64,000 nucleotides of DNA from a virus. Below, piece after piece: positions 26,379 through 63,999 of the stretch (positions are counted from its first letter, which is position 1; each line of letters opens with the position of its first letter). A program made the position numbers and the translations under genes. Location: positions 1-64,000 of IMG/VR virus record IMGVR_UViG_3300044467_000006; one strand, given 5' to 3'. Below the pieces are notes generated by a model. It saw nothing but the letters and a program-made list of their open reading frames with translations. It made no database searches and was not told the origin of the DNA.

Positions 26379-27197
26379 TTACCGATGGCCTGTAGAGGCT
26401 TGCTGGATAAGGGCGAGAATTTCCGGCTTGATTGTCTGGTCCCATTCGCGCTCGGCCCAAGTATAGGCTTCGTCCATGAGTTTTTTCGCTGGAACGCCCG
26501 GATGAACCCACTTCCCAGATCCTTTCTGCGAGGAAGAAACCACTCGGAAGGTCATAGCCGTCTTCTGGATCATTGGACTGGCCCCGCCAATCTGGCGCTG
26601 CATGACTCTCATACCCTGAAGGAAAGGGGTGCCGGTCTGCCCTTGCCTGACTTGGCCGATAGCTCCCCAACCCTGATAGGTGCCTTCCGATGTCTTGATG
26701 GGCTTGTCCATCACGTCGAGCTTGTGCAGTGCTCCGACTTTGGGTCGGCCATCGATCTCTTTCTCAATCTGCTTCATGTTGATGTTGGCGCGCTTGAGAG
26801 CATTCATAGCCGCAAGCCGGATTGGAAGGGCGTTAGGCGCAGTATTAGCGGCCCCCTTGATAGGGAAAGGGATGACCTTGTAACGGGTGCCCTTCTTGGA
26901 TGTCATGGCATTCTTGAGAAGGTCGTCGATCATCTCGTGTCGAGGCATTCCTTCTTCAATCCACATCGCCTTCTTATCTAGGGTGACGGTCCATGCTCCA
27001 CCTCCAGCGGCTTCATAGCTAAGAGCATTCAGGTATTCCTGTCGAGAAGTGCGAAGCTTGGACTGGGCGATCTCCACAACCTTTGAGTACGTCATGGCAG
27101 CAAGGTCTTCGGCTGACTGCGAAAGCATTGCATCTGCAATAGCCTTCACCCGCTCGTGCATAGCGGAGATATCGCCAAGGTTGAGGTTGAGGATCAT
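26379..27197 (-). CDS. minor virion protein, HK97-gp10-like
   Basis: This encodes 272 residues with a helical N-terminus, then TLDKKAMWIEEGMPRHE, which resembles the edge strand and loop of HK97 gp10-type tail-completion proteins, then a Lys-rich extension. Context (neck and tail genes) agrees. Its start overlaps the stop of the 1052-residue gene upstream. Confidence 0.55.
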   Translation of the reverse strand: MILNLNLGDISAMHERVKAIADAMLSQSAEDLAAMTYSKVVEIAQSKLRTSRQEYLNALSYEAAGGGAWTVTLDKKAMWIEEGMPRHEMIDDLLKNAMTSKKGTRYKVIPFPIKGAANTAPNALPIRLAAMNALKRANINMKQIEKEIDGRPKVGALHKLDVMDKPIKTSEGTYQGWGAIGQVRQGQTGTPFLQGMRVMQRQIGGASPMIQKTAMTFRVVSSSQKGSGKWVHPGVPAKKLMDEAYTWAEREWDQTIKPEILALIQQASTGHR

Positions 27198-30355: not shown

Positions 30356-30780
30356 TAGGAGATCCTCTTGTTGTGTTTCCGCGAGTTGCAGGACTTGCAA
30401 GCAGGGCGCAAGTTAGCTGGCCAATTGGTGCCACCTTTAGATAGAGGGATAACGTGGTCGATGGTAGTCCCCTCAATTTTGCAGTCCGCAAGCTTAAGCC
30501 AGCACTTCCCACCCCACATTGCCTTGCGAGACTCCCACTGCGACAAGCTGCATTGCCCTTTAGCATTTCGCTTGCGGGCGCGTCGGCAGCTTTCTGCGAG
30601 AGCGTGGACTTGTTTCCCGTGAGTGGTTTCTCTGTAGGCTTTCTGGTAGACGGAAACCTTGTCCTTGTTGGAATCCCTGTATTTTTGGGCTGCTTTGTTT
30701 TCTGCGTCAGGGAATTTGGCCAGATAAGCAGCCCTGTACCTGCGACTCTGCTCTGGAGTAGATTTACCTTGACTTGCCAT
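30355..30780 (-). CDS. HNH homing endonuclease
   Basis: This encodes 141 residues. The C-terminus is an HNH core: IDHVIPLSKGG, then NLRPACKSCNSRK. The N-terminal half is basic helix, a likely DNA-binding arm. It has its own late motif, is divergent from another endonuclease gene, and is joined by TAATG to the giant palm-domain gene. Confidence 0.85.
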   Translation of the reverse strand: MASQGKSTPEQSRRYRAAYLAKFPDAENKAAQKYRDSNKDKVSVYQKAYRETTHGKQVHALAESCRRARKRNAKGQCSLSQWESRKAMWGGKCWLKLADCKIEGTTIDHVIPLSKGGTNWPANLRPACKSCNSRKHNKRIS

Positions 30781-40919: not shown

Positions 40920-42692
40920 CTATGCTGCTCCAGCCCACAAACGATTTAAAACCATCCACTTGGCTCCCGGCATAGCCCTGATCTTGGCGATGCGTTCGAG
41001 TGCTGCGGATGGATCAACGTGATAGTCACTAAGAATCTCAGCGACGTGATGCTCGTTGACGTGCTCTACCCATTGGTCGAAAATCTGTGCGCCACGATCT
41101 CCGAGACTGGGCATGTAACGAAGACGATCGTGAGGGCTCATCTTGGTAAATTTCTGGCCAGTCCATGCGCGAAGGTAGAACGGAATGAAGCTGTTTTCGT
41201 CACCAGACGGATCGAAGCCAGAGCCCGCTAGAGCGCTACCGTGGTCGATAAGGCGAACGATCTTGTTATCAGGATCGGCCATGAGATTCTGGCTGTGGCG
41301 GTCTGGATTGCCTAGCACGTAATCGATGAAAGACCACTTAAATAAGGTGCTGTTCTGGCGGTACGGTTCCATGATACGGGTCGGTAGGTTAGGATCTTCC
41401 TTCTTCTTCTGACCTAGGTTGTGGAAGTTAATAGGTAGAAGCTCCATTGCGGCTGTCTGGTGGTTGTTTACCAAAACGAGGTCGGCTCTTGGGAATGAAT
41501 CGCCAATGCCAATGTAATCAGCAACATGCCAAAAAGCAGCTTCGCGCTCAGACTGAGAAGCATCAATCTGGCTAACTCCACTTGCGGGACTATTCTTGCC
41601 AGAACCCGGCTTGAGGAGGTAGATTTTCTTGGTCTGTGGGTCCTTGGCGAGCATAGTCCCCTTGGAGTGCTTGCCATTGAGCTTGACAGGGTTGATGAAA
41701 CCGCCGTTGGCTGCACGCTGAATCGCGTTAGCAACTTCTGTAGCCTCAGACCGGGCTGGTGTGATCTTGTAGGACTCTACGTTAAGCGAGCTTTCATCCT
41801 TAAGGAGATTCGAATCCTTCAAGAAGGTGTCGAGGCGGAAGAGGTTGTCGGCGTCTGGAGCAATGTGGTACGCGGCCAATACCGCTTCAGGAATCGTATC
41901 CACTTCTTCCAGCAAGTTGCGGGCAGCAGAGATCGAAATGCCGTTTGCCTTACTCATGGACAACATACGACACGCAGCGTCGATATGACGATGTAGATTA
42001 GCGGCGTATCCCAGTTGCTCCATAGCGGCTTCCTCATACCCCTCAAGGTCCATCCAACCATCAAGATTGGGCTCTTGCTTGGCCAAATAGCGAGAAGGGA
42101 CTAGGGTGGGTTCGCTGCGAGCTAGCTTAGTGGGTCGAGGAGCGGGCTGAGCTTCTTCTGGATCTAGACCGTGAGAGTAGGACTTGTAGGCAAAGTCGAA
42201 TGAGCCCGGTGAATCGTCGTTGTTGTCACGCCAACTAAAGGGCGACCTGTAAGCTCTCCCTGTCTGCTCGGCCTCATAAGCTAAGTTGTATTGGGCAGCG
42301 AGCTTCTCATGTAGGTGGTGAGCTAGTGTGGAGTGCTTCCCTCCCTTGACCCTAGTAAGGCCCATCTTGTTGCGAGCATGGGCATAGAGGGCAGTGTACA
42401 TCGCCGCTCCAATTCCCTTCTCGCGGTGTTCTGGCTTGACAGAGCTAGCGCCAATACGGATGTAGGGAGCAAATGGGACCGCGAGTAGCTTACCAACAAC
42501 TTCATTGGGATCGGTAACACTGACGGAAACAGTCGGAGTCCCGCTTTCGCCAACATCTTCAGCAATCGTGAGTTTATGGTCAGCCTTGAGATGTTCTGGC
42601 AGAAGATGGCTGTAGTCGTGGCTCTCCCTCGCCTCGTCGTACTTGCCGGGAGGAATGTCCTTGATAGCCGCCTTGGATAGATACGTTCTCAT
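40920..42692 (-). CDS. fusion of GNAT-like domain and HipA/PI3K-like kinase domain
   Basis: This encodes 590 residues. The N-terminal 180 form an acetyltransferase-like module: HDYSHLLP, then REKGIGAAMY (acetyl-CoA loop), then HSTLAHHLHEKLA and YNLAYEAE. Residues about 330-590 are kinase-like: an ATP-binding strand pair, VLGNPDRHSQNLM (catalytic loop) and RLIDHGSAL (metal-binding, DFG-like). It overlaps the small protein 42692-42904 by one base. Related modules recur in 47550-53153 (GNAT-like) and at 42909, 46430 and 62605 (kinase). Confidence 0.75.
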   Translation of the reverse strand: MRTYLSKAAIKDIPPGKYDEARESHDYSHLLPEHLKADHKLTIAEDVGESGTPTVSVSVTDPNEVVGKLLAVPFAPYIRIGASSVKPEHREKGIGAAMYTALYAHARNKMGLTRVKGGKHSTLAHHLHEKLAAQYNLAYEAEQTGRAYRSPFSWRDNNDDSPGSFDFAYKSYSHGLDPEEAQPAPRPTKLARSEPTLVPSRYLAKQEPNLDGWMDLEGYEEAAMEQLGYAANLHRHIDAACRMLSMSKANGISISAARNLLEEVDTIPEAVLAAYHIAPDADNLFRLDTFLKDSNLLKDESSLNVESYKITPARSEATEVANAIQRAANGGFINPVKLNGKHSKGTMLAKDPQTKKIYLLKPGSGKNSPASGVSQIDASQSEREAAFWHVADYIGIGDSFPRADLVLVNNHQTAAMELLPINFHNLGQKKKEDPNLPTRIMEPYRQNSTLFKWSFIDYVLGNPDRHSQNLMADPDNKIVRLIDHGSALAGSGFDPSGDENSFIPFYLRAWTGQKFTKMSPHDRLRYMPSLGDRGAQIFDQWVEHVNEHHVAEILSDYHVDPSAALERIAKIRAMPGAKWMVLNRLWAGAA

Positions 42693-42908: not shown

Positions 42909-44054
42909 TTACCTATTCCAAACGTGTAGCGGCACTTGATAGTCTTGCATTACACCGTGCTGTTCATACCACTCTGGGCGAGAACTAATGTCGTCTAGCT
43001 TCTTGACTCGCTCTGAAAAGTTATTCCAAACGTGCTCCTTCATGCGCGGCTCTTTAAGGCCAGAGAGCCTACTGGCCATGGTTGCAACAACTTGATCGCG
43101 CACTCTAGGCCACCAGCCGGTTACAGCCGGGATGAGATCAGGCGAGTGGAATGGCGGATAACCGTGTAGCCGCGCAGCTTGCCCCAGCTTCTCAAAAGCT
43201 CTGGAGTGGAAGTAACCCGTGAGATTATCAAATTGTTTACCCCATGCATTTCCTTCGTCGCGCTTCTCCTGCGGTACAGTCTCTAAATCGCCAAAGACAT
43301 TATGAGCCTTCGCCGGGACTCCTTTGTGGGAAGCATGGTATTGGAAGCTTCGTCCGTGGTCGATAGACATCAGCTTGGATTTGCGCGGGATGCCGTACTC
43401 ATCTACAGAGCCCTTCGGGAAGACAAGGAGGTTGGCAGTGTGCCTGTCGAGGTTGTTCGACAGGAAGTCCATGATGCCCATCTTGAAAGCGTCGGCGTGC
43501 ATACGCTCGTCATACTCATTAGGGTCCATGTTCTGAACCCAATCAGCATGGGGTGCCATGTGGACTACTAGGCCGGGATGCTTGTCAAAGCCCGGCCCCA
43601 TGTCGTGCTCTGAAACATGAACGGCTTGGTGAAGGTGCCCTACATCAGCAGCATGCCAGAGAGACTGGCTGGTCATCTCTGCCCACCCCTGAATCGGATG
43701 AGTTTGCCAGAACGATGCCTTCTCGGGTACCGCTTCGTGGTATGGCTTCACCATGAACATGTCGCCATTCGGAAGGCTGTCTGCCCTCGGCACTTTGTAC
43801 ATGACCTTGGGAGTTTGCCCATGCAGAGTAGTTGGACCGGCGCGCATCAACGGAGTAGCGCCAGAGAGAGCCTCTCGGTAAACAGCGACAGCGGGATTGT
43901 GAGTGCGAGGATGAGCGTCGAGATCGAAGGTGTGGTCAACCGCGTCCATCCCATGAGGAGAGGTCTCTTGGCGAACCATATCGAAGTCGCCAGAGGCAAT
44001 AGACTTAGCTAGAATGCCTAGTCCTAGTCGCTTTTGGAATTGTCCTAGCCCCAT
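42909..44054 (-). CDS. HipA/PI3K-like kinase homologue
   Basis: This encodes 381 residues. Shared with its paralogue at 46430: FMVKPYHE (nucleotide-binding Lys region), GWAEM, then NNLDRHTANLL (catalytic loop) and MSIDHGRSFQY (metal-binding). The catalytic D, H, N and D are all present. Family members phosphorylate proteins or lipids; the substrate here is unknown. It lies between two other effector-like genes. Confidence 0.72.
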   Translation of the reverse strand: MGLGQFQKRLGLGILAKSIASGDFDMVRQETSPHGMDAVDHTFDLDAHPRTHNPAVAVYREALSGATPLMRAGPTTLHGQTPKVMYKVPRADSLPNGDMFMVKPYHEAVPEKASFWQTHPIQGWAEMTSQSLWHAADVGHLHQAVHVSEHDMGPGFDKHPGLVVHMAPHADWVQNMDPNEYDERMHADAFKMGIMDFLSNNLDRHTANLLVFPKGSVDEYGIPRKSKLMSIDHGRSFQYHASHKGVPAKAHNVFGDLETVPQEKRDEGNAWGKQFDNLTGYFHSRAFEKLGQAARLHGYPPFHSPDLIPAVTGWWPRVRDQVVATMASRLSGLKEPRMKEHVWNNFSERVKKLDDISSRPEWYEQHGVMQDYQVPLHVWNR

Positions 44055-46429: not shown

Positions 46430-47548
46430 CTACTCCTCCAAGGTCCGCATAGGGACCGAAGCTCTCGACCATTGAGCTTTGTGTGAGCCGTTTTGGATGT
46501 TGTCGTTCATGCCTTCGACGTACGCCTTACACCCCAATGAATCCGAATCTGACATGACCCGGTCCAGAACCGCCGCTCTATCAGCGAAGGACTTAATCAA
46601 GTGGCAAGCCAAAGGAGCGTGCTTGATCCCGGCAACATGAGTATGAAACTCTCGGCTGATAGCGGGCTTGTTGTCTACCCACCACTTGGCCACTGTCGGC
46701 ATTGACTCTCCAAGACAATTTTGGAGCCTGAAGAGCTTGTATCCCGGAGCTTGGACGTAATCAAAAAGGTGGTCTACGCCATTGTCTCGCTCGGCAAAAC
46801 GGTTGGGCGACATGTACTGCATCGAACGACCGTTGTCGATAGCGAGCAGCCCCTGCGCCACCGCTGGAGTGCCCGGGATGTTAGCAGGAGCAAGATTAAC
46901 CATGAGGTTTCTGCCGCTACGGTCTTGGTGGTTCAGTAGGAAGTCCAGAGTAGCAAGTTTAAGCGCGTTGGTTTTGACATACGACGGCATTTGTACAACG
47001 CCATGATGGGAATGCCAACTCCAAGGCTCCGTTTTTGCTCCATCGAGCAACTCGGGGTCCATAGAACAAGACGGGTAGTGATCCTCATGTAATTCTACTG
47101 CCAGCAACGGAAGCCCCTTGTCGTTGGGATACTGGAAAGTGTGGACATTCATGGCATTCGGTCCCAGTCCGCTCTTGTGAAGGATGCCGTGCCAAGCCAT
47201 TTCAGCCCAACCAGATAGCGGCAGTTTCCCTTGATGCCAACCACGTAGATACTCATAGTAGGGTTTAACCATGAAGAGCGAACTAGGCATAACGCGGCCT
47301 TCCTCGTCCCTAGCCCCGCCCACCCGGAAATGCTGTTTTTCTGTTGCGCCACTACCATACATGTCACTTAACGACTTTAGGACGTTGTGAGTAGGGTTGC
47401 TGAGAAACTTAGATCGGAACAAGGTCATAGAATCTTGTGCCGACGGGTCAACGAATTGAGGAGAAGCGTGGAAGTCGGGATCCACCAAAAGCCTGCCGCC
47501 CTCGTGATCGCTAGCGTCCAACAGCTTCATTAGCCCTGCATTTGGCAT
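46430..47548 (-). CDS. HipA/PI3K-like kinase homologue, divergent
   Basis: This encodes 372 residues, paralogous to 42909-44054 (LFMVKPYYE, GWAEMAW). The catalytic loop reads NHQDRSGRNLM and the metal motif LAIDNGRSM, so His of DRH is replaced by Ser and HG by NG. Activity may be altered or lost. It abuts the small partner gene and the 1867-residue gene. Confidence 0.7.
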   Translation of the reverse strand: MPNAGLMKLLDASDHEGGRLLVDPDFHASPQFVDPSAQDSMTLFRSKFLSNPTHNVLKSLSDMYGSGATEKQHFRVGGARDEEGRVMPSSLFMVKPYYEYLRGWHQGKLPLSGWAEMAWHGILHKSGLGPNAMNVHTFQYPNDKGLPLLAVELHEDHYPSCSMDPELLDGAKTEPWSWHSHHGVVQMPSYVKTNALKLATLDFLLNHQDRSGRNLMVNLAPANIPGTPAVAQGLLAIDNGRSMQYMSPNRFAERDNGVDHLFDYVQAPGYKLFRLQNCLGESMPTVAKWWVDNKPAISREFHTHVAGIKHAPLACHLIKSFADRAAVLDRVMSDSDSLGCKAYVEGMNDNIQNGSHKAQWSRASVPMRTLEE

Positions 47549-47549
47549 G

Positions 47550-50500
47550 TTAGCTCCGATTTACAGCAACGTCGTATCCGCCCCACTTGCCGTCGATGGG
47601 CGCGTTCGGGGCAGACTCCCATGCCGCTTCAGTTGGATATTTGGCCGATGGATAGTTGGGAGTTGCTTCGTAGTTAAGGTTGTGCTTGACTGCCAATTTG
47701 TTCCACAAGCCATGAGCCAGCGAGGAATGAATCAACCCTCGTAGGTGCGTAGCTCCCCAATGCTTGGTGGCACTTGCCATTAGGCTCTCGTACATGGGAG
47801 TCCCCAGCCCCTTGCCGGTGTGTTCGTCGTTGATGTTGGCAAGGTCGATCTGGGCATACTTACGAGTCTCGTTGTTCCTGATAACTGGAGTATCATCCAC
47901 GAACAACGACGCTCCACCGACGATGCGATCCCGATGGTAGACGTTTGCGATAGTTGAAGGACCGAACGTTCCGTTGCTCGCGTGTAAGGTCATCCTGTAT
48001 CCAGCGTTGCGGTGCTCTGGCGTCAAGTAGTGGGTTGCGTCGTAAATGCGTTCGCCACCCTGAACTCTAGGATTTTCAAGTGGGGGTAGCGTCGCAATCG
48101 ACTTGGCTAGCTCTTCGTAGGTCGGCAGTTCTTCAAACTTGCGGACAATAGAGGTGTGGACCTGCTTGCCCACCAAATCTCCGCCGTAACCGCCGCTGTC
48201 GTTTTCTTCGGCATGCGGATCGGTTCCAGAGAAATACCTGTCATCATCCATGTCATAGCCCATCTTAGCCGGAATCGCGGTATACGTAGTCGGCAGCCAG
48301 CCCGGGGGTTCGGCGGGATCGAGATCGCGGAGTTTGGCAGCCGCATCGTGCCCGGTGATTCGCACTTTGATGTTCGGGCCATGCTGCTGACGAAGGTGCT
48401 CGTGGAATGCCTCTAGAATAGCCTCGTGAGGGTCTACGTTTTTGCCGAAAGCAATCTCGTTAATCTTGTCAAGATGATCCGACGGCATATTGGAGAGAGT
48501 CTCTAAACTGCTCGCCTTCCAGAAGTAAAACATCTGTGGAGGATTCACCCTTCCGTTCGTGATTTTTGCCTGTTCAAGCGCATGCTTGTAGTTGGCGGTA
48601 GCACCATGCCAAGAGAGGCCGGCCTTGTCCTGCGGACGGAAGTCTGACTGAATCTCAGAAATAAAGACCTTCCCATTACTATCTACAGGACGATAACGGA
48701 CCCACCCGAGAGTGTGGTTGTCGAGAGGGTGGATGTCCTTCTTACCGCGAATAAGCTTCTTGAAGGTTGCCCAGACGCCAGATGCCTTCATCTGCTTGAC
48801 GTGCTCGTCGGTTAGGTTGACTTGGAAGACGCTGTCTGCATCGCGCCTAACATGCTGCTGAGCCCCACCGTATTTTGCAGACCCGACATTGAACTCCTTG
48901 ACAGGCAAGGAATCGATATACTTCTGGACACTTTCGGTCGAAACGAAATCGGACTTCTTCTTGACCGGGCCTGTCGGACGATTCTTTGGAGGAATCTTTG
49001 CGATCTCCTCGGGGGTCATATCCCTCATTTCGCGGGCACGGTCATAATTGAGTTGCTTGGGAAGCTCGTTAACGTGAGCCCTCCCTCCACCGGCAGTATC
49101 AATAAGGTCGCGGACCTTACGCCAAATGGCACTGCCGAATCGAACGACAACGTGAGGAGACTTCGCTCGATAATGCGCGTTAGGGGACGACTCCTTCATA
49201 AGTTCCCCGATGGCCTTACCTAAAGAAACAGCGGTGTGTTCGGTTAGCCACTGAGGATCGAGCCCGTAATATTGCAAGAGTTGATCTTGCTGAGCCATCT
49301 TACTATGAAGGTCTTTAACCCATGCCTCTGGAGCATGCGGAGATTCTGCCAGATAATTGTAGAATGCGTGAGCTTTCTGTTGCGCGGTATTCCTTGCTCC
49401 TTGCCAGTGCTCGTCTTCTCCCCAGTTACCTTCTGGCATAACAGCGCGGGCCTTTTCGATCATCTTGTTGACCGTGCTCTCGGGAAGATTGGAACCTCTC
49501 AGCAGTTCTCTATAAAAGACACTGTCGAACGGCCCGCGATCAATAGCGTCATCTCTCCAAGCTGGGTTTGCCTTGGGGTTGTTTAAGAAGCTTAAGGTCT
49601 CTAATTCGGAATCATTGCCAGCAGCAAGGTGCTTGTTCCAAATAGTCTCCAACACATTCTCGGGGATATGTTTGCTTGTAACAGCCTCGGCGGTGGCTTG
49701 TGTGACAGGCGATACTTCAAAATGCCCATCGTTTAGCATCTTATTCCAATGTTCGGGCGCCAATTTGCTACCGTAGGATTGCAGGAGGTGACGTAATGCC
49801 TCGTCGTGCTGGCCTTTGCTCCAAGGGACATTGCCTTGAGAAGCAACTTGGTAAATTGTATACCCATTGTCATCGTATTGGTAATGACCTTCATTGTCTA
49901 AAGCTGGATTTCGGTTGAACACTATCGGCTTCATATCCAAAATGGCCGAAGCATGCTCCGAAGTAAAGTTAGGGTGCTCCATCAAAGGAAAGACGGAAGC
50001 AACCTGCTTTGCAGTAGACATCAAGTGACTAATGTGGGCAGGTGTCAAAGCCGGGGAACGGGCTAGATTGTTCTGGACGCCTGCCTTGAATTGGGGAAGG
50101 CTCTCTTCGCCCCAGTCGCTATCTCGGCGGAATCCTTCTGGATTGCCGGATGGCGAGGCGGATGTGAACTCGGGGCGGGAAAGAACGTAATCAATCCATT
50201 CCGGCTTGGCGTCAGAGCGATTGAGAATGCTATCAATGATTGAGTGACGCTTGGAATTTCCCAAGAGCTTGACCGCATTTCCGTGATCAACACTCCGAAC
50301 GAACTCCACGATCGCGCCAACGTCCGGGTCTTGCGGCGGTCGTTGTAAAAGGTAATCAGTCAGTCGGTCGTCTACGCTCTTATCCTTTAGCCCAAGGGCA
50401 TCTCTCCAATAAAATGGATCGCTTTCCGTTCTGTCATTGTATCGGTCTATGTTTCCCCACGGAAAGCGCGGATGGTTCAACCCGAAGACCGCGTTTGCTT

Positions 50501-53153
50501 GGTGCTCGGGCAGGGCGTAATTCACACACTGAGCGTGCTTGTCTAGCAATGCATGGAAAGCCTGTGTAGTCACCTTACCCTTAAGAATGTCGAACAAGCT
50601 TAGGTTGAGAAAAGGGTAGGCAAAAGGATTAGATGTATGCACAGCGTGGGGGCTGTCATATTCGTTACGCAAAATACCGTTTTCGTCCAATCTCCAATAA
50701 CTATACTGATTGCGCTCGCGCGGAGTAAACGCAGACGCCAGTGCGTCCTGATGGGCCTCCGCAAAAATTTTCTGACGCTCATCTACGTTCCCCATCGCGT
50801 TGCTTAGCGCAAAATCTGCAATGCTGGGGGTGAGCTTATTAGCATCCGCTAGAGATTGAAGGAACTCTTGACTAGGAGAATCTAAGTAGAACTGCATTGC
50901 TAGATCGTCATCAAAAAATCTAGAGTTGACGATGTCGTCGTGGCTAAGATCATCTCGAAGATCCTTCGCAAGACCCAACCAATGTTCTTTGGTAATGAGA
51001 GGGTGATTGAATAGGGTCTTGGACAGTTCGCGGCGGACGAAGGGGTGCTTGGTGGTCTTGCCTGCCGCCACATGCTCTAGAAGGGCTGTAAACTTGGCAG
51101 CCGGGAAGCCCGGAGCGTGAGCCAGCATGGCCAGATACAAGCCCTTCTTGATATTGCCCCTGAAGGCAGCAGCCGGAACTCCCCCTTCGATCATCTTCTT
51201 TACATCACCCAACACCCCTTGTAGTTCTCTGGTGAGATAGCGAGAAGAGGCGGTGTGCTCGGAAGAGAATTTTTCTAGAGAACCTACTAGATCCTTGGCG
51301 TAAGCCAAAACATTGAGTTTTGCTTTGTCAGACAAAGGAACTTCTGGAGTTACTTTGCTCAGGGCTATCTTTAAAAAACCAGAACGCAAGCTCCCTCTTT
51401 CACGAGATTTAAGATAGAAATCGGCGTCCTCAAGCATCGACGGAGCGATCTCGTCTGGACGCTCTGTAAACCAACTCATCTTAAGCGAAGGCAGTCTCTG
51501 AAGAATATCCTTGCGGGCTGAGCCAACGGCAGTGTCAGCGAAGGAGGAGTGGGCTTGAATAGCTTGAGAGAGATTGTCGATCCCGTTGGTGAACCACTGC
51601 GTATTTGCCCAAGCGGGCAATGCATCGGGACCTACTCTCGCAATAGAACTTAAAACTCCCTCGCGCTCCGGGAAAAACATGGGGTCCTCACGCCCCGCTT
51701 CATCAGTGAAGGCGGCGTCGAGGATTCCGGGCGTCATCTTAGGATGATTTAAGATACCGGCATATTGGTGACGGAGGGGTTGCCGGGGGTTGGCTATCAA
51801 CGCGCGGAGATGTTTGCCCCCGAATCCGGGCAAGTCCATGATGTCCGAAATGTAGCTCCAACCCGCTCCGTAAGGAAGCGTTCGAATTGCATCCATGACA
51901 GGATCGGTGCCCTCTTCCTCCTCCTTCGCTAGTGGAATACCGATTTCTCCATCAAGTCTGGCGAATTCGTGAAGCTTAAGAGCATAGCTCGACATAGCGT
52001 CATCGAAACTGCCGGGATGCCTAGCGCTAGGATTGGGAGACCTTGGCCGTGGCTCTTGTGCCCAACTCAAGCCGTACTTGTCGGCAATGCTCTTGTGGAC
52101 AGCGTCAGCGGATAGGCTATGGTTCCCGCCAGTAAGTAGTTGGGCGTCATGGTTGTTCTTACCGTGCGCGATAAGAGCTTCGTAGGCAGCCTGCCCCAGA
52201 GCTTGCCCTCTGTGAGCCTTATCTGTACGGGCAAAATTGATGTCGATTGAACGGTCGTGCTCGTTGAAGAGAGCTTCGACCTTGCTAAGAAACTTGTGTG
52301 AAGTCCCGTCGGGCTTGTGCTGATGCACCCAAGCCGCCATGAGGGAAGGAGTCTCATCGTAACGACGGTGAGTGGTACGCACTTCAAGTTGATAGCCAGC
52401 TTCGCGCTGCTCGGGAGTCAAGAGGTGGCCGTAGTCGAAGAAGCGGACGTGATTCCGCTCTGCACTCTGAGTCTGCGGACCCACAGGGATAGTTTCTAGT
52501 CCTTCGCTCTTGCCAAGGCGATACGTATATGGACCGTAGCGGTCATCTATAGATTCGGGCTCTTGCTGTTCAGTTCCCCATGACTCTGGCGAATACTGCT
52601 TGCCTCCAAAGCCGCCCATTTCGGCAGCATCGGGCTCCACCAAACTCTGATTTTCGAGCAGGTTGGGCATTGCTTCGTAACTGAGGTTGTGCTTGTCGGC
52701 TAGGTATTGGTGAGCTTTGTGCGCATAAGTAGAATGAGCGCCCCCAACAACGTGGGTTGCTCCAAGAGCATTCCTAGCGTGAGACATGACCGCTTCGTAG
52801 AGCTTGCGCCCGAAGTACAAACGCTTGCCGTTGTGCTCGCGCGGGGCACCTCGGACTTCTGATTGAGCAATACGTAGAAACTTACGCCCGTCCTTCTCGG
52901 CGGGAAATACATCGCTCTCAACATAACCCAGACGCTCGCCCCCTTGGTCATACAAAGATGCGATAAGCCATCCAGCCTTGTCTTCAGGCTTTTCGCCAAT
53001 AGTTGGCTGCCAGCGGACGTTGATATAGGCCCCCGGGACAGCTTCGTGATGAATGGGGTCCAAAATGTGGGTGTAGTCATGGATACCCTTCCCCCTTTGC
53101 GGAGCTTCGGGTCCAACTGGGATATTGGCGAGCGTTTTATGAAGTGGGAACAT
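47550..53153 (-). CDS. 1867-residue polyvalent protein: three GNAT-like modules, helical repeats, DEIQ-D-type domain
   Basis: Largest gene here. Two GNAT-like modules at the N-terminus (about residues 20-180 and 235-385) and one at the C-terminus (about 1710-1850) share a start (HDYTHIL, FDYGHLL, YDATHYL), a GxG/A-type cofactor loop and an ending HSxxAH then NLxYEA. The middle thousand residues are LRV/HEAT-like repeats. A domain with LGWVRYRP and ISEIQSDF (about 1480-1690) matches those in 27197 and 36585. An LGKSE linker separates modules 1 and 2. Probably a virion-carried multi-domain effector; every activity is inferred. Confidence 0.7.
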   Translation of the reverse strand: MFPLHKTLANIPVGPEAPQRGKGIHDYTHILDPIHHEAVPGAYINVRWQPTIGEKPEDKAGWLIASLYDQGGERLGYVESDVFPAEKDGRKFLRIAQSEVRGAPREHNGKRLYFGRKLYEAVMSHARNALGATHVVGGAHSTYAHKAHQYLADKHNLSYEAMPNLLENQSLVEPDAAEMGGFGGKQYSPESWGTEQQEPESIDDRYGPYTYRLGKSEGLETIPVGPQTQSAERNHVRFFDYGHLLTPEQREAGYQLEVRTTHRRYDETPSLMAAWVHQHKPDGTSHKFLSKVEALFNEHDRSIDINFARTDKAHRGQALGQAAYEALIAHGKNNHDAQLLTGGNHSLSADAVHKSIADKYGLSWAQEPRPRSPNPSARHPGSFDDAMSSYALKLHEFARLDGEIGIPLAKEEEEGTDPVMDAIRTLPYGAGWSYISDIMDLPGFGGKHLRALIANPRQPLRHQYAGILNHPKMTPGILDAAFTDEAGREDPMFFPEREGVLSSIARVGPDALPAWANTQWFTNGIDNLSQAIQAHSSFADTAVGSARKDILQRLPSLKMSWFTERPDEIAPSMLEDADFYLKSRERGSLRSGFLKIALSKVTPEVPLSDKAKLNVLAYAKDLVGSLEKFSSEHTASSRYLTRELQGVLGDVKKMIEGGVPAAAFRGNIKKGLYLAMLAHAPGFPAAKFTALLEHVAAGKTTKHPFVRRELSKTLFNHPLITKEHWLGLAKDLRDDLSHDDIVNSRFFDDDLAMQFYLDSPSQEFLQSLADANKLTPSIADFALSNAMGNVDERQKIFAEAHQDALASAFTPRERNQYSYWRLDENGILRNEYDSPHAVHTSNPFAYPFLNLSLFDILKGKVTTQAFHALLDKHAQCVNYALPEHQANAVFGLNHPRFPWGNIDRYNDRTESDPFYWRDALGLKDKSVDDRLTDYLLQRPPQDPDVGAIVEFVRSVDHGNAVKLLGNSKRHSIIDSILNRSDAKPEWIDYVLSRPEFTSASPSGNPEGFRRDSDWGEESLPQFKAGVQNNLARSPALTPAHISHLMSTAKQVASVFPLMEHPNFTSEHASAILDMKPIVFNRNPALDNEGHYQYDDNGYTIYQVASQGNVPWSKGQHDEALRHLLQSYGSKLAPEHWNKMLNDGHFEVSPVTQATAEAVTSKHIPENVLETIWNKHLAAGNDSELETLSFLNNPKANPAWRDDAIDRGPFDSVFYRELLRGSNLPESTVNKMIEKARAVMPEGNWGEDEHWQGARNTAQQKAHAFYNYLAESPHAPEAWVKDLHSKMAQQDQLLQYYGLDPQWLTEHTAVSLGKAIGELMKESSPNAHYRAKSPHVVVRFGSAIWRKVRDLIDTAGGGRAHVNELPKQLNYDRAREMRDMTPEEIAKIPPKNRPTGPVKKKSDFVSTESVQKYIDSLPVKEFNVGSAKYGGAQQHVRRDADSVFQVNLTDEHVKQMKASGVWATFKKLIRGKKDIHPLDNHTLGWVRYRPVDSNGKVFISEIQSDFRPQDKAGLSWHGATANYKHALEQAKITNGRVNPPQMFYFWKASSLETLSNMPSDHLDKINEIAFGKNVDPHEAILEAFHEHLRQQHGPNIKVRITGHDAAAKLRDLDPAEPPGWLPTTYTAIPAKMGYDMDDDRYFSGTDPHAEENDSGGYGGDLVGKQVHTSIVRKFEELPTYEELAKSIATLPPLENPRVQGGERIYDATHYLTPEHRNAGYRMTLHASNGTFGPSTIANVYHRDRIVGGASLFVDDTPVIRNNETRKYAQIDLANINDEHTGKGLGTPMYESLMASATKHWGATHLRGLIHSSLAHGLWNKLAVKHNLNYEATPNYPSAKYPTEAAWESAPNAPIDGKWGGYDVAVNRS

Positions 53154-58065: not shown

Positions 58066-59490
58066 TTAGCCCTTGACGTTATCCACGAGCACATTTTTTC
58101 TGGGCTGGGGAACCGTGAGTGTGAGAAAGCGGAAGTGCGCCTCCGGGATCGAGAGGTCGGTCACAGCTAGCTTGAGGCGGCTGTAAGGCGATAGCTCACG
58201 AACTTCCATCGTGTCTCCTTGGATGAGGTAGCCAGTCACGAAGCCCGGGATCTTGGCCCCGGTGTCATCGAACTGAACCACGTTCGCGCTACGATTGACG
58301 CGGCCAATCCACTTGGTCGTGGTCCCGCCAACTTCCGAGCGGTACACGTTGAAGTAGAGCGGTAGTGCGCCACCGCCAGTGGTGATGTCGAAGGTGATAC
58401 GGTCACCAGCGACAGACGCCACGGTTAGAACTGCGGACGCAACGCTTTCCCCAAGCTCGTTACACGCGGTAACGATGTAGTTGTAGTTACCCGTGAGCAG
58501 CGCGCCAGTTGCAGGGCTTGCGCTGTTACCAAGGGTAGGAGCACCGGGAACGCCGGGGCGGGAAGCCTGCGGACGAGTCTTGCCAGAGAGGAAGCGGGAC
58601 GCTTCAAGCTGGACGGTACCACCAGAAACCCACTGACGACGGAGGTCCGCGCCAGAGGCATCTTGCGGTGAACCGGCAAGGATGATGCGTTCCTTTTCGA
58701 ACGCTAGCTTGTTGTATGCAGCGAGCGACCTCGGGTCGAGGATGAGTCGATCCGCGTTACCCATGTTCATCGCAGAGCGAACAGCCGCGTCTTCGATGTT
58801 GGCTTGGGTTAGGACGCCCGTACCGTGCGAGCCGTAGCCCGGAACGGTGGTGAGGGAAGCGATGCCGCCACCCTGAATGACAACGGTTTCGTCGGAGCCG
58901 TACTCGCCAAACATGAGATCCTTGGCGTTACGCTGCGCATCCGACTGACGAACCTGCTCGCCAAGTCCGAGGACGTTGGGAAGCGGGGCGATAGTACCCG
59001 GGTTGCCGTCGAACACGCCGATGTTGCTGAAGCCTTCCTTACCACGGAAGAGGTCGAACTCAACGTCAGCCGAAATCTTCTTGGCTGCCGAAGACGCAGC
59101 ACGCTCAGAGGCGTCCTTGCCGTCAACGGTGTTGACCATGTTGGCCACTAGCGTCACGCGACGAACGTGTGAGTAGTAGCACATGGGAACCACGACACGG
59201 ACGTAGTCGTCCGTGAATTCCTGACCAACAGCGCCTTCGATAACAGCCGTCCCGCCGAAGCCGCCGTAGCTAAGCTGACGATCAAACTGAACGAGGGTGC
59301 TCTTCGCGGGGCTCACCTTAAGCATCTTCTGAAGCTTAATGTGTGAGTCATCGAAGGTGACATTGTTCATAACCGGGGAGAGATCCTCGGTCTGTAGAGC
59401 GCTGCCTTGGACGAGTGAACCGGGGGCCGCATCATATCCGCCCGCCTCAAGTGCCTTAACTAGCGACTGTAGTTGTTCCAGTGCGTTCAT
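58066..59490 (-). CDS. major capsid protein candidate with Ig-like insertion
   Basis: This encodes 474 residues from ATG 59490 (AAGGAG 6 nt upstream). The sequence has a capsid-like layout: N-terminal helical arm, beta-rich E-loop-like segment (QLSYGGFGG), and a P-domain-like region with repeated short helices. Residues about 310-420 look like an FN3/Ig-like insertion (YNYIVTACNELGES), as in decorated capsid proteins. Own terminator and position after a scaffold-like gene fit a highly expressed capsid gene. Assignment is by pattern and context. Confidence 0.72.
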   Translation of the reverse strand: MNALEQLQSLVKALEAGGYDAAPGSLVQGSALQTEDLSPVMNNVTFDDSHIKLQKMLKVSPAKSTLVQFDRQLSYGGFGGTAVIEGAVGQEFTDDYVRVVVPMCYYSHVRRVTLVANMVNTVDGKDASERAASSAAKKISADVEFDLFRGKEGFSNIGVFDGNPGTIAPLPNVLGLGEQVRQSDAQRNAKDLMFGEYGSDETVVIQGGGIASLTTVPGYGSHGTGVLTQANIEDAAVRSAMNMGNADRLILDPRSLAAYNKLAFEKERIILAGSPQDASGADLRRQWVSGGTVQLEASRFLSGKTRPQASRPGVPGAPTLGNSASPATGALLTGNYNYIVTACNELGESVASAVLTVASVAGDRITFDITTGGGALPLYFNVYRSEVGGTTTKWIGRVNRSANVVQFDDTGAKIPGFVTGYLIQGDTMEVRELSPYSRLKLAVTDLSIPEAHFRFLTLTVPQPRKNVLVDNVKG

Positions 59491-59500
59491 TGTATTCTCC

Positions 59501-60382
59501 TTACTTGAGAAGGTGCTCGATGGCGGCGAGATTAACTCGGCCCTCATAGAACCCCGTGACTAGGTCGCGGTCCGACTTCTTGAAATCTGCGCTTCGCGTA
59601 AGCTCACTGAGCTTGGCGGTGATTTCTGCGGGACTGACCGGCTTCTTCGGTGCTTCTTCCGACTTAGCGACGTAAGAAGTACCAGTGATTGCTTTCTGCA
59701 TCGGCTTGTTGACGACAGTGGTAACGATCTTGGTTAGTGCCTCGATCTGTGCGTGTAGGTCAGCGATTTCTGACTTGCTGAATTCCCCGCCGTTACCAGC
59801 CTGAGAAACTCCGATGTTCTTGCCTTCGCCCATTGCCATCGGGGGAGCCCCAGCAGGCGACGGACTTGCACCGGGAGGGGGAGGAGCACCCGCGCCTGCG
59901 CCCGGAGGGGCAACAGGAGCCGACGGACCAGCACCCTGCCCACCACCCATGACTTGCATGAGTGCAGCCTTCGCTGCTAGGTAGTGAGCCTTGAGTTCCT
60001 CTGGAGGAAGCTGAGCATACTCTTGCTCAAGCGCGGCCGGATCAACTGGCCCGCCTTCGCCCCCACCTTCTTGACCGGGAGCGCCACCCTCCATACCGGG
60101 AGGAGGAGCTTCGCCACCAGCCCCCGGAGGTGCGCCACCTTCAGCGCCCATCGGAGGTGCGCCACCGCCCGCAGACGGAGGACCGCCCGCACTAGGAGAT
60201 CCACCCGCAGACGGGGAGCCTCCAGCGGCAGATGCAGAGCCCATACCGGGGGACGGAGAACCGTCTTCCTCGCGGGCCTTTGCTAGCCTGTTTTGCGCGT
60301 CAGCCAGAATTTCGTTGAGTTCACCGTCGAGTTCACCGAGGATGTTGTCAAGTTCCTGACTTGATACCTTGAGATTTGCCAT
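59501..60382 (-). CDS. low-complexity head/scaffold-like protein
   Basis: This encodes 293 residues. A helical N-terminus is followed by about 130 residues of Gly/Pro/Ala/Ser-rich sequence, a helical segment, and a charged C-terminus. SKSE and AKSE sites flank the helical part. It directly precedes the capsid gene in transcription, the usual place for scaffold or protease-scaffold. No protease catalytic motif visible. Confidence 0.55.
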   Translation of the reverse strand: MANLKVSSQELDNILGELDGELNEILADAQNRLAKAREEDGSPSPGMGSASAAGGSPSAGGSPSAGGPPSAGGGAPPMGAEGGAPPGAGGEAPPPGMEGGAPGQEGGGEGGPVDPAALEQEYAQLPPEELKAHYLAAKAALMQVMGGGQGAGPSAPVAPPGAGAGAPPPPGASPSPAGAPPMAMGEGKNIGVSQAGNGGEFSKSEIADLHAQIEALTKIVTTVVNKPMQKAITGTSYVAKSEEAPKKPVSPAEITAKLSELTRSADFKKSDRDLVTGFYEGRVNLAAIEHLLK

Positions 60383-60406: not shown

Positions 60407-60889
60407 TTAGACGCGACCCTGAATCGGGTAGTAGAGGTTGGAATTGAACGTACCAACTAGAGTGCCCTGCGCTGCGATGTTAGCTGCGGTAGGAGCATTG
60501 CCGTTAGCGATCTGCCAGAGTTCGACAGTTCCGCCTCTACGGACGAGTTCGCCAACAACCTGCATGATGAGAGCAGGAGCGACGTAGTAGCTGAGCGGTG
60601 CCGCGCCAAGCTCATAGGTGAGCTTGAAGACAGTACCAGTGTAGACCGGCTGATCGACGCTGCCGAAACCCGGAAGAGCCTTCCAGCCCGGCTCGGTCGA
60701 GGTAACGGTGCCGCGCTGGGCCTGAACCGCGATCTGGACGCCAGCATTGGTGGTAGTGCAGTTACCGACGCTGATGAGTGGAGCAGCAAACGCGCTCTCC
60801 GACTGATCAACTACGGCAGTAAGCCCCGTGCGGAGTGCAAGGACTTCTGCCGCCGATTCTGCGGTTGCTGATTGCTTAAAATTTCCCAT
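60407..60889 (-). CDS. small head protein candidate
   Basis: This encodes 160 residues, beta-rich with an Ala/Thr/Val bias, no membrane span. Position just upstream of the scaffold-like and capsid genes suggests a head decoration or fibre base. Good GGAGATT ribosome binding site. Confidence 0.58.
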   Translation of the reverse strand: MGNFKQSATAESAAEVLALRTGLTAVVDQSESAFAAPLISVGNCTTTNAGVQIAVQAQRGTVTSTEPGWKALPGFGSVDQPVYTGTVFKLTYELGAAPLSYYVAPALIMQVVGELVRRGGTVELWQIANGNAPTAANIAAQGTLVGTFNSNLYYPIQGRV

Positions 60890-60974: not shown

Positions 60975-60984
60975 CAATCTTGCT
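60975..60984 (+). promoter_or_regulatory. late-motif variant CAATCTTGCT (rightward)
   Basis: Rightward copy ending 4 nt before the ATG at 60989, in the 99-nt divergent gap. Confidence 0.45.
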
Positions 60985-60988
60985 AAAC

Positions 60989-61309
60989 ATGAACAGATAC
61001 AAGTGCTTGTCTTGTGGCCACGAAAAACGCAGAACGGAATTCTACGAAAAACGTAGCAATAGCGCCAAGTTAAGACCTGTATCTTCAGATTGCCGTATTT
61101 GTCGCAGCACCAATCGTTCGGTTCAAATGGGCGCGACAATAGATGGAAACTGCCAGCGCTGTGGAACGCCAGCGATCCTGTCAAGCAATAAGCAGTGCAA
61201 AAGATGCCTCAAACAACAGGGGCTAAAGCAGTGCCGCTCCTGTCGAGAGGTCAAAATCGTAGAGTTGTGGTTTTACGAGAAGAAGGCTCTCTGTAAGGAC
61301 TGCCTCTAG
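60989..61309 (+). CDS. multi-zinc-finger protein, possible homing endonuclease relic
   Basis: This encodes 106 residues with four CxxC groups (CLSC, CRIC, CQRC, CKRC) plus CRSC and CKDC. The opening CLSCGHEKRRTEFYE resembles the zinc N-terminus of the endonuclease VII-like gene at 22450-22920, but no HNH core follows. It faces right within leftward genes and overlaps the GGDEF gene end by 4 nt. Either a relic or a free-standing DNA-binding protein. Confidence 0.62.
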   Translation: MNRYKCLSCGHEKRRTEFYEKRSNSAKLRPVSSDCRICRSTNRSVQMGATIDGNCQRCGTPAILSSNKQCKRCLKQQGLKQCRSCREVKIVELWFYEKKALCKDCL

Positions 61310-62028
61310 ATGAGATCGAACTCGTTGTCTAGAGGAATCGCGCCTTCATGGCCGGGTAAAAGGCTATGGACATGAGTCTTTGCCTGTCCCGGGGCATATC
61401 GCATGGCGTTCTTGGTCTTCTTGGCGTGCTCGCGCACAGCTTCGTCCGCCTTATCAGCAGTATGGGCGATCCCGATTTTGAGACTGTGGTTGAACCGTCC
61501 CGCAATGGGAACTAGCTGTCCCAACCGCTTGGTAATCTCGCGGGTGTAGTGAGCGGCCCGGGCGTGATCCTTGGAAATGTCGCCAGTCTTAGGAATCAGA
61601 GTGTGGAATTCATCCCCGCCCAGACGGTAAATCTTGGCGGTGCCCTTCCCCAGTACAGCGTCAGCCGCTTCGCGATGAACATTGGCGTAGTTTCTGATAG
61701 CAAGATCGCCCTGATCATAGCCCGCGTTGTCGTTCATAGCCTTGTGATCGTTGCCGTCGGACCGAACGTGGATGTACTTAGTGTGAAAATCTGGAGCTTC
61801 AGACTCGTCAGTGTACGCAGCGTGATTGCCCACAACTCCATTCGTGAGCTTGTCGAGATACATGCGCTGGCGAATTACGTCAAAATACTTCTTGTCTTCT
61901 TCGGAGCCAGTTTCCGACTTACCCCGGAAATGGGCCATAGCCTCGCGAAGCGCAGGATCGGTCTTGGCAAGCTCTTCAAAATGAGCCGACATAGCTAGGA
62001 GCTTTTGTGCGACGTTGAAGACTTCCAC
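61306..62028 (-). CDS. GGDEF-domain protein
   Basis: This encodes 240 residues from a GTG. N-terminal helices (1-50) with a GKSE linker lead to a GGDEF domain: DKLTNG at 59-64, D91 as first metal ligand, MND at 98-100 and QGD at 106-108 (guanine-binding Asn and Asp kept), YRLGGDEF at 134-141, then LKIGIA and a final helix. The second aspartate of the usual DxD is Asn93. No RxxD inhibitory site is seen. Such domains make c-di-GMP or related nucleotides. It lies in an operon with a kinase-like gene near the capsid genes, an unusual setting. Confidence 0.82.
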   Translation of the reverse strand: MEVFNVAQKLLAMSAHFEELAKTDPALREAMAHFRGKSETGSEEDKKYFDVIRQRMYLDKLTNGVVGNHAAYTDESEAPDFHTKYIHVRSDGNDHKAMNDNAGYDQGDLAIRNYANVHREAADAVLGKGTAKIYRLGGDEFHTLIPKTGDISKDHARAAHYTREITKRLGQLVPIAGRFNHSLKIGIAHTADKADEAVREHAKKTKNAMRYAPGQAKTHVHSLLPGHEGAIPLDNEFDLI

Positions 62029-62029
62029 G

Positions 62030-62602
62030 CTACACCTTCTTCCTGTAGCGAAGCTTGCCCAAGCCAGTCTCTAGAGTGTACATGATGCGCTCGGTCTCTC
62101 TGGTCGAGAGCTTGGTGCCGTTCATAAACACTTCCTGCCCGTGAACCTCAAGAATCTGAGGCTCCTTCATTCCAACCCTCATGTAGTCAAAGACCGCAGG
62201 AGGAGTTTGCATACTGAAGCGAGGAGAGTTGGGGTCCACGATCTGGGGAGCTTCTGCGCTTGCGGGTTGCTCGACAACATCAGGCGGGCTGCCGGGTTGC
62301 GGACCGGAAGGATCGGGATTTTCTTTCCCTTGAGGGATTAGTCCTATGTGATGCCCTTCTTTGACCTCAGACTCGGAAACCACTTGAGTATATGGAGAGC
62401 GAGCCAAGGAATCAAGTTGCTGTAGACTGTGCCCAACAGGACCATTGGACAACATCTTGAGCATGCCGTTATGATCCTCAAGGACTCGGAGCTTCCCATC
62501 TTCGATCATGAAGCGGCCCAAAAGAAGTCGCTGGTTGCCCTTCTCGTTAGGATAGACCCCATATACATCGAAGATTCCGTTAGCATTTTGGAAGTCAACC
62601 AT
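62030..62602 (-). CDS. hypothetical protein between kinase and GGDEF genes
   Basis: This encodes 190 residues: a beta-rich N-terminus (FDVYGVYPNEKG pattern), a Pro-rich linker (about residues 100-135), and a short beta/helix C-terminus. One to two bases separate it from both neighbours, so the three form one transcription unit. No family recognised. Confidence 0.65.
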   Translation of the reverse strand: MVDFQNANGIFDVYGVYPNEKGNQRLLLGRFMIEDGKLRVLEDHNGMLKMLSNGPVGHSLQQLDSLARSPYTQVVSESEVKEGHHIGLIPQGKENPDPSGPQPGSPPDVVEQPASAEAPQIVDPNSPRFSMQTPPAVFDYMRVGMKEPQILEVHGQEVFMNGTKLSTRETERIMYTLETGLGKLRYRKKV

Positions 62603-62604
62603 AG

Positions 62605-63999
62605 TTATCCCTTAATGTATTTGCCCATATGCTTGTGGATATGTGGCTCCATGTAGTCCAAGATGCGCTTCTGGAAATCTTGGTCTGTTTCTCCATCGCC
62701 TCGCTCTGGGCCATGCCACTGTCGAGACAATGCATCTAAACTATAGCCTAAGCTGTTTAAATACCCCGCCGGGTCTGCACCTTTGGAGATTCCGCGGGCC
62801 AACCTATTGGCCCCTTCGTCCCTATTGCGATGAGCCTCTCGCCTCTCCGAATTTCCTCGGCGGCGAATTGAGTTATTGAATTCAGTAACGGCTTCATCAA
62901 AAGTCATATCGGCGTGATGAGCAAATTTCTTGATGATGTTCTCGGCTTCTCCCGGGCCACGATTCGACATGAGAAGCTCGTAAGGAACGGGCGCTTCGCC
63001 TTTTCTTGAAGCCGACTCATGGTCCTTACTTACTGCAAGGCTAGCGAGGTCGTAGTCCTGCTCAGCTTCGGGCAAATTTTGGATACGAGCCTTTACCTCT
63101 TTAACCCGTTCTGCGTGACGAGCAAGGACAGAGAAATCCTTGTATGCCCTCTCTCGAATCTGAGGGGCATGCATTCCTGTCCATCCCGAATTTGCAAACC
63201 CCAGATAAGACGTGATTTCGTCCACCGATGCGTCTGGCTCTACAGACGCATAGTGTTGGAGATTCTCTAGCCGCTGCCGTGCCGCCCGAGCTACGGAAAC
63301 AGGAACATCGTGATCTTGGATCTCTTTAGTAAACTTGTCCTTGTCGATGCCCATCAGCCATTTTCTGGCATCGGGATGCAAGCGGTTGTCATTGTGTCCG
63401 GCGGCTTTTGCCGCTTCCTGTGCAGGAACCATATAATCGCTTCGATCGTCGCCTACACCACGAGAAGGGAAAGAGTCGCCATGGTCAATGAGGTAGATGT
63501 TATCTCCTTTAGCCCCACCGAACATGAAATTGTTTAAGTGGCGGTCGCGAGCACCAAGCATCTGATCTGCGAGAGCCAATTTGTGAAGCTTGCCGTTCTG
63601 AATATTCTTTACGAAAGCGCTATTTTGCTCCTCGTCCCCATCGCGCTGGTGAGCGGCGTTGGGAATAGCCTCATGAACGGACCACCAATCATTGGGCCTT
63701 GGCTCTTCGTTGGTCTTCAGGTTGGGGTTTTGGAAGATTGAAGTAGGAGCTACGTGCTCGCCCAAGCCAAGATGATGCATCATATTGTGAAACATGATCT
63801 CGTTAAGCGCACTGGATCTGCCATCTCGCTGAGTGGAAAGAGTCTTGATGAAAGCTTGCTTGCCATTAGGTAGCTTGACCCATCGGCCTTCGGAGATACC
63901 CGACTTAAAATGTTCTGGCGAAAACTGGGCTGCGGCATTGTGATCAAAGCCGTGGACCATCTGTCTCTGGTAATCATTGATGATTAGATTTGAAGGCAC
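62605..63999 (-). CDS. HipA/PI3K-like kinase homologue (possibly 5'-truncated by window)
   Basis: This encodes up to 464 residues, the first codon being GTG at the window edge, so the true start may lie outside. The kinase core has AFIKTL (Lys), LNEIMFH, then LGARDRHLNNF (catalytic loop) and YLIDHGDSF (metal motif); all expected catalytic residues are present. The C-terminal 200 residues are helical and charged. It is the first visible gene of the kinase/unknown/GGDEF trio. Confidence 0.72.
   Translation of the reverse strand: MPSNLIINDYQRQMVHGFDHNAAAQFSPEHFKSGISEGRWVKLPNGKQAFIKTLSTQRDGRSSALNEIMFHNMMHHLGLGEHVAPTSIFQNPNLKTNEEPRPNDWWSVHEAIPNAAHQRDGDEEQNSAFVKNIQNGKLHKLALADQMLGARDRHLNNFMFGGAKGDNIYLIDHGDSFPSRGVGDDRSDYMVPAQEAAKAAGHNDNRLHPDARKWLMGIDKDKFTKEIQDHDVPVSVARAARQRLENLQHYASVEPDASVDEITSYLGFANSGWTGMHAPQIRERAYKDFSVLARHAERVKEVKARIQNLPEAEQDYDLASLAVSKDHESASRKGEAPVPYELLMSNRGPGEAENIIKKFAHHADMTFDEAVTEFNNSIRRRGNSERREAHRNRDEGANRLARGISKGADPAGYLNSLGYSLDALSRQWHGPERGDGETDQDFQKRILDYMEPHIHKHMGKYIKG

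What the first reader, a model, noticed from the sequence alone, without database searches (positions are those of the whole stretch)
61306..62028. A GGDEF-domain protein inside the late operon of a phage
The protein keeps the GGDEF signature (YRLGGDEF), one metal aspartate, and the guanine-binding Asn and Asp. It lacks the RxxD inhibitory site and has Asn in place of the second aspartate. Its neighbours are a kinase-like gene, an unknown gene and head genes, not typical signalling partners. If active, it could make c-di-GMP or another nucleotide during or at the start of infection to reset host behaviour or block nucleotide-based immunity.
Basis: partly seen in the sequence, partly recalled or inferred. 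Interest (0 to 1): 0.82.

Follow-up and report, generated by a model that had tools for sequence, protein, structure and literature searches.

The report
Signalling enzyme in phage head module
A phage carries, among the genes that build its head, a gene that looks like an intact bacterial signalling enzyme (a c-di-GMP synthase); related phages keep it in the same place, often fused to the protease that matures the head, so it may travel inside the particle and act as infection begins.

Summary
The ORF at 61306-62028 (-) is a real GGDEF domain (Pfam 38.5 bits, cut-off 23.8; AlphaFold pLDDT 90; Z about 17 to WspR, DgcB, PleD). Metal Asp, guanine-binding Asn and Asp, the GGDEF loop and a phosphate Lys are present; the I-site is absent; Asn replaces the second Asp. 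The 'kinase-like gene' is the end of a 1424-aa protein whose N-terminus is a head-maturation-protease domain. Myxococcus phage Mx1 and 33 further viral contigs keep the GGDEF domain in this module, between protease and capsid genes; in 17 of 35 it is on the same polypeptide as the protease. The linker after the protease repeats the N-terminal motif of the capsid protein. Catalytic columns are nearly invariant. Best reading: a diguanylate cyclase without product inhibition that belongs to the prohead and is probably carried in the virion as an injected effector. Activity, product and packaging are unproven. The same phage has a second cyclase-like domain (mCpol, like Panoptes OptS), matched in 20 of 28 related records. 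GGDEF in injected 'polyvalent' phage proteins was proposed in 2017, so this is a new variant of a known kind.

The parts
61306..62028 (-). GGDEF-domain protein, 240 aa, predicted diguanylate cyclase
   Evidence: Pfam PF00990 over cut-off; AlphaFold2 model and PDB matches; homologue in the same place in Mx1
62030..62602 (-). 190-aa protein of unknown function, directly before GGDEF; fused to the GGDEF domain in 30 of the 35 family members
   Evidence: 28% identical to the Mx1 protein in the same place, E=1e-16; fusion states
62605..63999 (-). C-terminal part, with a kinase-like domain, of a 1424-aa protein that runs beyond the window to about 66879; its N-terminus is a head-maturation-protease domain
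   Evidence: full ORF; PI3_PI4_kinase match below its cut-off; Mx1 'putative prohead protease', 28.6% identity; PHROG head maturation protease in 13 of 17 members
60407..60889 (-). 160-aa protein, family kept downstream of GGDEF
   Evidence: profile hits in the related loci
59501..60382 (-). 293-aa Gly/Pro/Ala-rich protein before the capsid gene, scaffold-like by position (inference)
   Evidence: profile hits in the related loci
58066..59547 (-). major capsid protein; its N-terminal motif recurs in the linker after the protease domain
   Evidence: PHROG major head protein E=1.6e-42; 55.9% identical to the Mx1 capsid protein; shared motif

Best explanation
The gene encodes a diguanylate cyclase without product-inhibition site that belongs to the prohead module of Mx1-like phages. 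It is made with the head-maturation-protease module, probably enters the prohead with it, stays in the mature head and enters the next host with the DNA. There it makes c-di-GMP (or a related dinucleotide) from host GTP before phage genes are expressed. The likely benefit is a fast change of host surface and motility state, or interference with nucleotide-based immunity. Shown here: fold, nearly complete catalytic set, lineage-wide position, fusion to the protease in about half the members, constraint on sequence. Inferred: activity, product, packaging, injection, host effect.
For: Fold and active site. 35 family members: metal Asp 33/35, N99 34/35, third GGDEF residue Asp 34/35, K203 33/34. 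Fused to the protease in 17 of 35. GGDEF present in 20 of 22 loci with the protease on the capsid strand. A scan with GGDEF domains alone gave 17 loci, all in this module. Capsid-like motif in the linker after the protease. dN/dS 0.06-0.15 in 8 close pairs.
Against: No virion proteomics and no assay. The capsid-like motif was found in capsid and protease proteins, not beside GGDEF, so its release from the fused forms is unexplained. GGDEF is absent in 19 of 19 loci with the protease on the other strand, so it is not needed for head assembly as such. Asn replaces the second Asp; the PleD K332 position is Lys in only 18 of 35 (Lys in the window copy), R446 is Lys, and D108 is Asn in 6 of 34. L023, L030 and L057 have eroded sites. 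The dN/dS pairs come from three clusters, do not include the window gene, and several have dS above 1.
Confidence: 0.48

Rival explanations
1. Late cytosolic cyclase: it is active but not packaged. It raises c-di-GMP late in the infected cell (superinfection exclusion, motility arrest, timing of lysis); its place among head genes only sets its timing.
For: In the window and Mx1 it is a separate gene; no packaging signal was found next to it.
Against: Fusion to the head protease in 17 of 35 members would be an odd way to make a free enzyme.
Confidence: 0.25
2. Non-catalytic part of the prohead: the palm domain serves as a scaffold or as a nucleotide-binding regulator of assembly.
For: Some members have eroded motifs (L023, L030, L057). 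A GGDEF fold does not by itself show catalysis.
Against: Catalytic columns are among the most conserved of 216 (metal Asp 33/35, Asp of GGD 34/35); a purely structural role does not need them.
Confidence: 0.15
3. Other product: the enzyme makes a different di- or oligonucleotide that jams nucleotide-based immunity, together with the mCpol protein of the same phage.
For: 13 of 14 records with a GGDEF match also have an mCpol match. Base-contact D108 varies (Asn in 6 of 34). mCpol products hold Panoptes effectors off (passages of PMC12657218 and PMC12657230).
Against: The window copy keeps the Asn and Asp associated with guanine. mCpol also occurs without GGDEF in 7 records, so the two are not obligate partners. 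No product or host system is known.
Confidence: 0.12

Closest known systems
Bacterial diguanylate cyclases (PleD, WspR, DgcB, SiaD; Pfam PF00990)
   Same: Same fold (Z 16.8-17.5), GGDEF signature, metal Asp, guanine-binding Asn and Asp, phosphate Lys
   Different: No I-site, Asn at the second Asp position, no sensor domain on the window protein, a family-specific C-terminal tail, and a phage head-gene context
Myxococcus phage Mx1 'nucleotide cyclase' WNM70324.1
   Same: Same gene order and a homologous protein, 31% identity, E=1e-16
   Different: Sequence has diverged far more than the capsid protein (55.9% identical); annotated only, and I found no study of it
Polyvalent proteins of phages with GGDEF domains (PMC5512222, passages)
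   Same: GGDEF in phage proteins thought to be packaged and injected, with other enzyme domains on the same chain
   Different: There described as not very widespread; here a whole lineage with the domain tied to a head-maturation protease and a fixed place before the capsid genes
Annotated cyclases of temperate phages (Bordetella LK3 and others; PMC8471281, passages; structural matches to phage G, SP-15 and CN1 proteins)
   Same: Phage-encoded GGDEF domain
   Different: LK3 is temperate with a lysogen biofilm correlation; no link to a head protease in the passages I saw
Panoptes OptS (mCpol), for the second domain at 27197-30400
   Same: Fold (Z 16.8, rmsd 1.8 over 118 residues)
   Different: N-terminal part of a 1067-aa phage protein, not a two-gene operon with an effector that I identified

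Membership tests
GGDEF diguanylate cyclase | GGDEF palm fold | tested here: met
   Model pLDDT 90.0; top 50 second-look rows are GGDEF proteins, Z 15.7-17.5
GGDEF diguanylate cyclase | GG(D/E)EF signature and metal-binding Asp | tested here: met
   GGDEF 137-141 and D91
GGDEF diguanylate cyclase | Guanine-binding Asn and Asp | tested here: met
   N99 and D108 (PleD roles recalled)
GGDEF diguanylate cyclase | RxxD inhibitory site (common, not required for membership) | tested here: not met
   Residues 128-131 are KGTA
GGDEF diguanylate cyclase | Synthesis of c-di-GMP | not testable with these tools
   Needs a biochemical assay
GGDEF diguanylate cyclase | Active homodimer | not tested
   Only monomer prediction was run
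Polyvalent phage protein | Several unrelated enzyme domains on one chain | tested here: not met
   The window protein has only the GGDEF domain; 17 of 35 relatives carry the protease on the same chain
Polyvalent phage protein | Encoded with head and packaging genes | tested here: met
   Capsid, portal and protease neighbours
Head-packaged, injected effector (T4 Alt type) | Present in virions and delivered with DNA | not testable with these tools
   Needs virion proteomics and infection assays
Head-packaged, injected effector (T4 Alt type) | Own copy of the capsid-like linker motif | tested here: not met
   Pattern hits lie in capsid and protease-bearing proteins; in the fused forms it follows the protease, and the window GGDEF protein has none

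The most novel reading that the evidence does not exclude
Mx1-like phages carry two cyclic-dinucleotide synthases as virion cargo, a GGDEF enzyme tied to the head-maturation protease and an OptS-like mCpol enzyme, and inject them to set the host's cyclic-dinucleotide pool at time zero: c-di-GMP to change host behaviour, and an mCpol product that keeps inhibitory-signal immunity of the Panoptes type switched off.
Probability: 0.12. Interest if true: 0.93.

Novelty: new variant of a known kind. Interest (0 to 1): 0.72.

Why it matters
Phages are known to degrade or soak up cyclic nucleotides (passages). A lineage that conserves a cyclic-nucleotide synthase in its head module would be the opposite strategy. 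The fusion to the head protease makes packaging testable with one proteomics run on an existing phage, Mx1. It would also give a natural way to ask what a pulse of c-di-GMP does at the start of infection.

Tried and rejected
Single-protein scans of viral contigs with the window GGDEF, capsid and 1424-aa proteins found no relative. Two-sequence alignments with Mx1 worked for capsid and portal, not for GGDEF. tblastn of the GGDEF protein in 50,697 phage records gave one weak hit (E=3e-3), an unannotated faecal contig, and missed Mx1 at that limit. Profiles of the protease and 'mid' domains matched no PDB sequence at E<=1, and the unknown domain one chain at E=0.43. The kinase profile matches PI3/PI4-type kinases weakly (best E=0.0043). 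The protease domain has no Pfam match in 0 of 17 members at E<=0.01; its name rests on PHROGs (best E=1e-7, 13 of 17; 4.5e-4 for this phage) and on the Mx1 annotation. PADLOC: no match for the GGDEF, mCpol, unknown and 1424-aa proteins; one of three kinase-like proteins gave a weak match, E=0.0057. Repeats near the gene look like chance. Rejected: chance or a miscalled ORF (fold, conservation, gene order). Also rejected: that Asn93 marks damage in this copy; it is a family trait, but that does not prove it harmless. The genome-contig scan gave one capsid relative, in a planctomycete MAG, with no GGDEF in view; the host of the window phage stays unknown. Left out of the 35-domain count: L005, six mCpol-like hits, loci of repeated contigs, and L121, a further member with the same neighbours seen later.

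Full report
What is there. The window is bases 1-64000 of a 94,360-base viral record. The ORF at 61306-62028 on the minus strand encodes 240 residues. It starts with GTG one base after the stop of the gene before it, with AGGAAGAAGG six bases upstream. Pfam GGDEF matches at E=1.2e-9, 38.5 bits against a cut-off of 23.8. It is the only PF00990 match in the record.

Is it a complete cyclase domain? An AlphaFold2 model from the window protein and 26 relatives has mean pLDDT 90.0 and pTM 0.82. Its best PDB matches are GGDEF proteins: 3ign Z 17.5 (rmsd 2.1, 148 aligned), DgcB 6tts Z 17.5, SiaD 7e6g Z 17.4, WspR 3bre Z 17.1, PleD 1w25 Z 16.8. A family profile finds 46 PDB sequences at E<=0.001, led by diguanylate cyclases. 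The window copy keeps D91, N99, D108, R135, GGDEF 137-141, K96 and K203; where PleD has R446 it has Lys. PleD residue numbers and roles are recalled, not from a call. There is no RxxD: residues 128-131 are KGTA.

Neighbourhood. Reading beyond the window shows that the 'kinase-like gene' is the end of a 1424-aa protein. Its kinase match is below Pfam's cut-off (22.7 and 27.1 bits). The N-terminal domain belongs to a group in which 13 of 17 members match the PHROG 'head maturation protease', best E=1e-7 and 4.5e-4 for this phage, with no Pfam match; His and Ser motifs (NxEH, S-x-E-G) are kept in the alignment. Farther on lie a plus-strand RlaP-like gene, a protein with a LAGLIDADG insert, the portal protein (Pfam over cut-off) and a 1055-aa protein with a second LAGLIDADG insert; I call the last terminase-like from Mx1 gene order alone. 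Downstream of GGDEF come a 160-aa protein, a Gly/Pro/Ala-rich 293-aa protein and the major capsid protein (PHROG).

Named relative. Myxococcus phage Mx1 (OR576727.2, 169,621 bases) has a capsid protein 55.9% identical and the order terminase, hypothetical, portal, hypothetical, four small minus-strand genes, 'putative prohead protease', hypothetical, 'nucleotide cyclase', two hypotheticals, capsid protein. The GGDEF proteins are 31% identical (E=1e-16), the unknown proteins before them 28% (E=1e-16). A meeting report calls MX1 a virulent phage of M. xanthus (PMC7232257, passage).

The lineage. Scans of viral contigs with capsid and portal alignments gave 55 and 59 loci. Domain profiles show one module, protease, linker, 'mid', kinase, unknown, GGDEF, with parts missing and fusions varying. 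With repeated contigs removed there are 35 GGDEF domains, the window and Mx1 included: 17 on the same polypeptide as the protease, 12 fused to the unknown domain only, one (L147) to mid and unknown with its 5' end cut by the contig, and five alone (window, Mx1, L030, L042 and L009, which is cut). L121 has the same neighbours and was not counted. Of the 55 capsid loci, 49 show at least 6 kb upstream: GGDEF is present in 20 of 22 with the protease on the capsid strand, 0 of 19 with it on the other strand, and 1 of 8 with none in view; some loci are near copies. A scan with six GGDEF domains alone found 17 loci, all in this module; six of the contigs are those of the query rows, five more had been seen before, six are new. 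The protease is visible in 16 and the 160-aa family gene in 15, the rest being cut by contig ends. That scan reaches only fairly close relatives.

Constraint. Over the 35: D59, G67, N68, R135, G138 35/35; metal Asp 33/35; N99 34/35; D108 27/34, Asn in 6; G137 32/35; third GGDEF residue Asp 34/35; E140 32/35; F141 26/35; K203 33/34; N93 32/35; K96 18/35; mean column conservation 0.55 over 216 columns. In the 8 close pairs with measurable dS, dN/dS is 0.06-0.15; they come from three clusters without the window gene, and several have dS above 1. GGDEF and capsid identities correlate (Mantel r=0.57, 0 of 2000 permutations as high, 30 loci), which fits vertical descent. L023, L030 and L057 have eroded sites.

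A shared linker. The capsid-protein profile also matches the stretch after the protease domain in many loci. A pattern of that motif hits 65 times in 7,318 ORFs: 41 in protease-bearing proteins, 22 in capsid proteins, one in a truncated capsid protein, one elsewhere; mean 0.0 in 20 shuffles. ORFs of overlapping loci count more than once, and the pattern misses capsid variants with Ile. I read it as a common processing or assembly site of the head protease; this is inference. No copy was seen beside GGDEF, so its release from the fused forms is open.

How it most likely works. The maturation protease acts inside the prohead (general knowledge of tailed phages, recalled). A cyclase on the same chain in half the members would then be inside too, and the split versions probably keep that place. 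Without an I-site its product should not hold it back. Packaging and injection would let it act before transcription.

A second cyclase. The protein at 27197-30400 (-) begins with an mCpol domain (42.7 bits, cut-off 26.4). Its model (five sequences; blocks of pLDDT 83-97 over the first 120 residues, 74.9 overall) matches Panoptes OptS 9pd0 at Z 16.8, rmsd 1.8 over 118 residues. Two Asp and Gly-Asp-Glu are kept in 5 of 5; a sixth, L030, lacks them. I searched the 26 viral contigs over 100 kb, Mx1 and this record: mCpol matches in 20 of 28 (19 over cut-off), against 1 of 14 control genomes (0 over cut-off); GGDEF in 14 of 28. 13 of those 14 also have mCpol, Mx1 below cut-off; 7 records have mCpol without GGDEF. 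OptS-type enzymes make 2',3'-c-di-AMP, and the product holds the effector off (PMC12657218, passages and one section; PMC12657230, passages). The section on mCpol distribution mentions no phage genomes.

What is known. GGDEF domains in polyvalent, probably injected phage proteins were described in 2017 as not very widespread (PMC5512222, passages). Bordetella siphovirus LK3 and, it says, yuaviruses carry annotated cyclases (PMC8471281, passages). I found no paper on a GGDEF linked to a head-maturation protease or on the Mx1 gene, nor on mCpol as a phage gene. The library holds open-licence papers only, and I read listings and passages, not all hits.

Verdict.

Noticed in passing
27197-30400 (-): 1067-aa protein with an N-terminal mCpol domain like Panoptes OptS; mCpol matches in 20 of 28 related records.
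   Followed up: partly
40920-42692, 42909-44054, 46430-47548 (-): Three further proteins match the kinase profile built from the 1424-aa protein; relatives carry several too.
   Followed up: no
47550-53153 (-): 1867-aa protein with a GNAT acetyltransferase domain near its C-terminus.
   Followed up: no
L002:9953-11887 and L002:14984-18151 (beyond the window): Two late genes hold LAGLIDADG inserts that look like inteins, in the proteins beside the portal.
   Followed up: no
L003:9565-11424 (beyond the window): Cpn60/TCP-1 chaperonin gene on the phage record.
   Followed up: no
60980-61309 (+): Cys-rich 109-aa ORF on the opposite strand between the GGDEF gene and the next late gene; only weak family matches.
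   Followed up: no
L014, L022, L024-L027 and other loci: In 19 of 49 related capsid loci with enough flank the head protease is on the strand opposite to the capsid gene and the GGDEF module is missing.
   Followed up: partly
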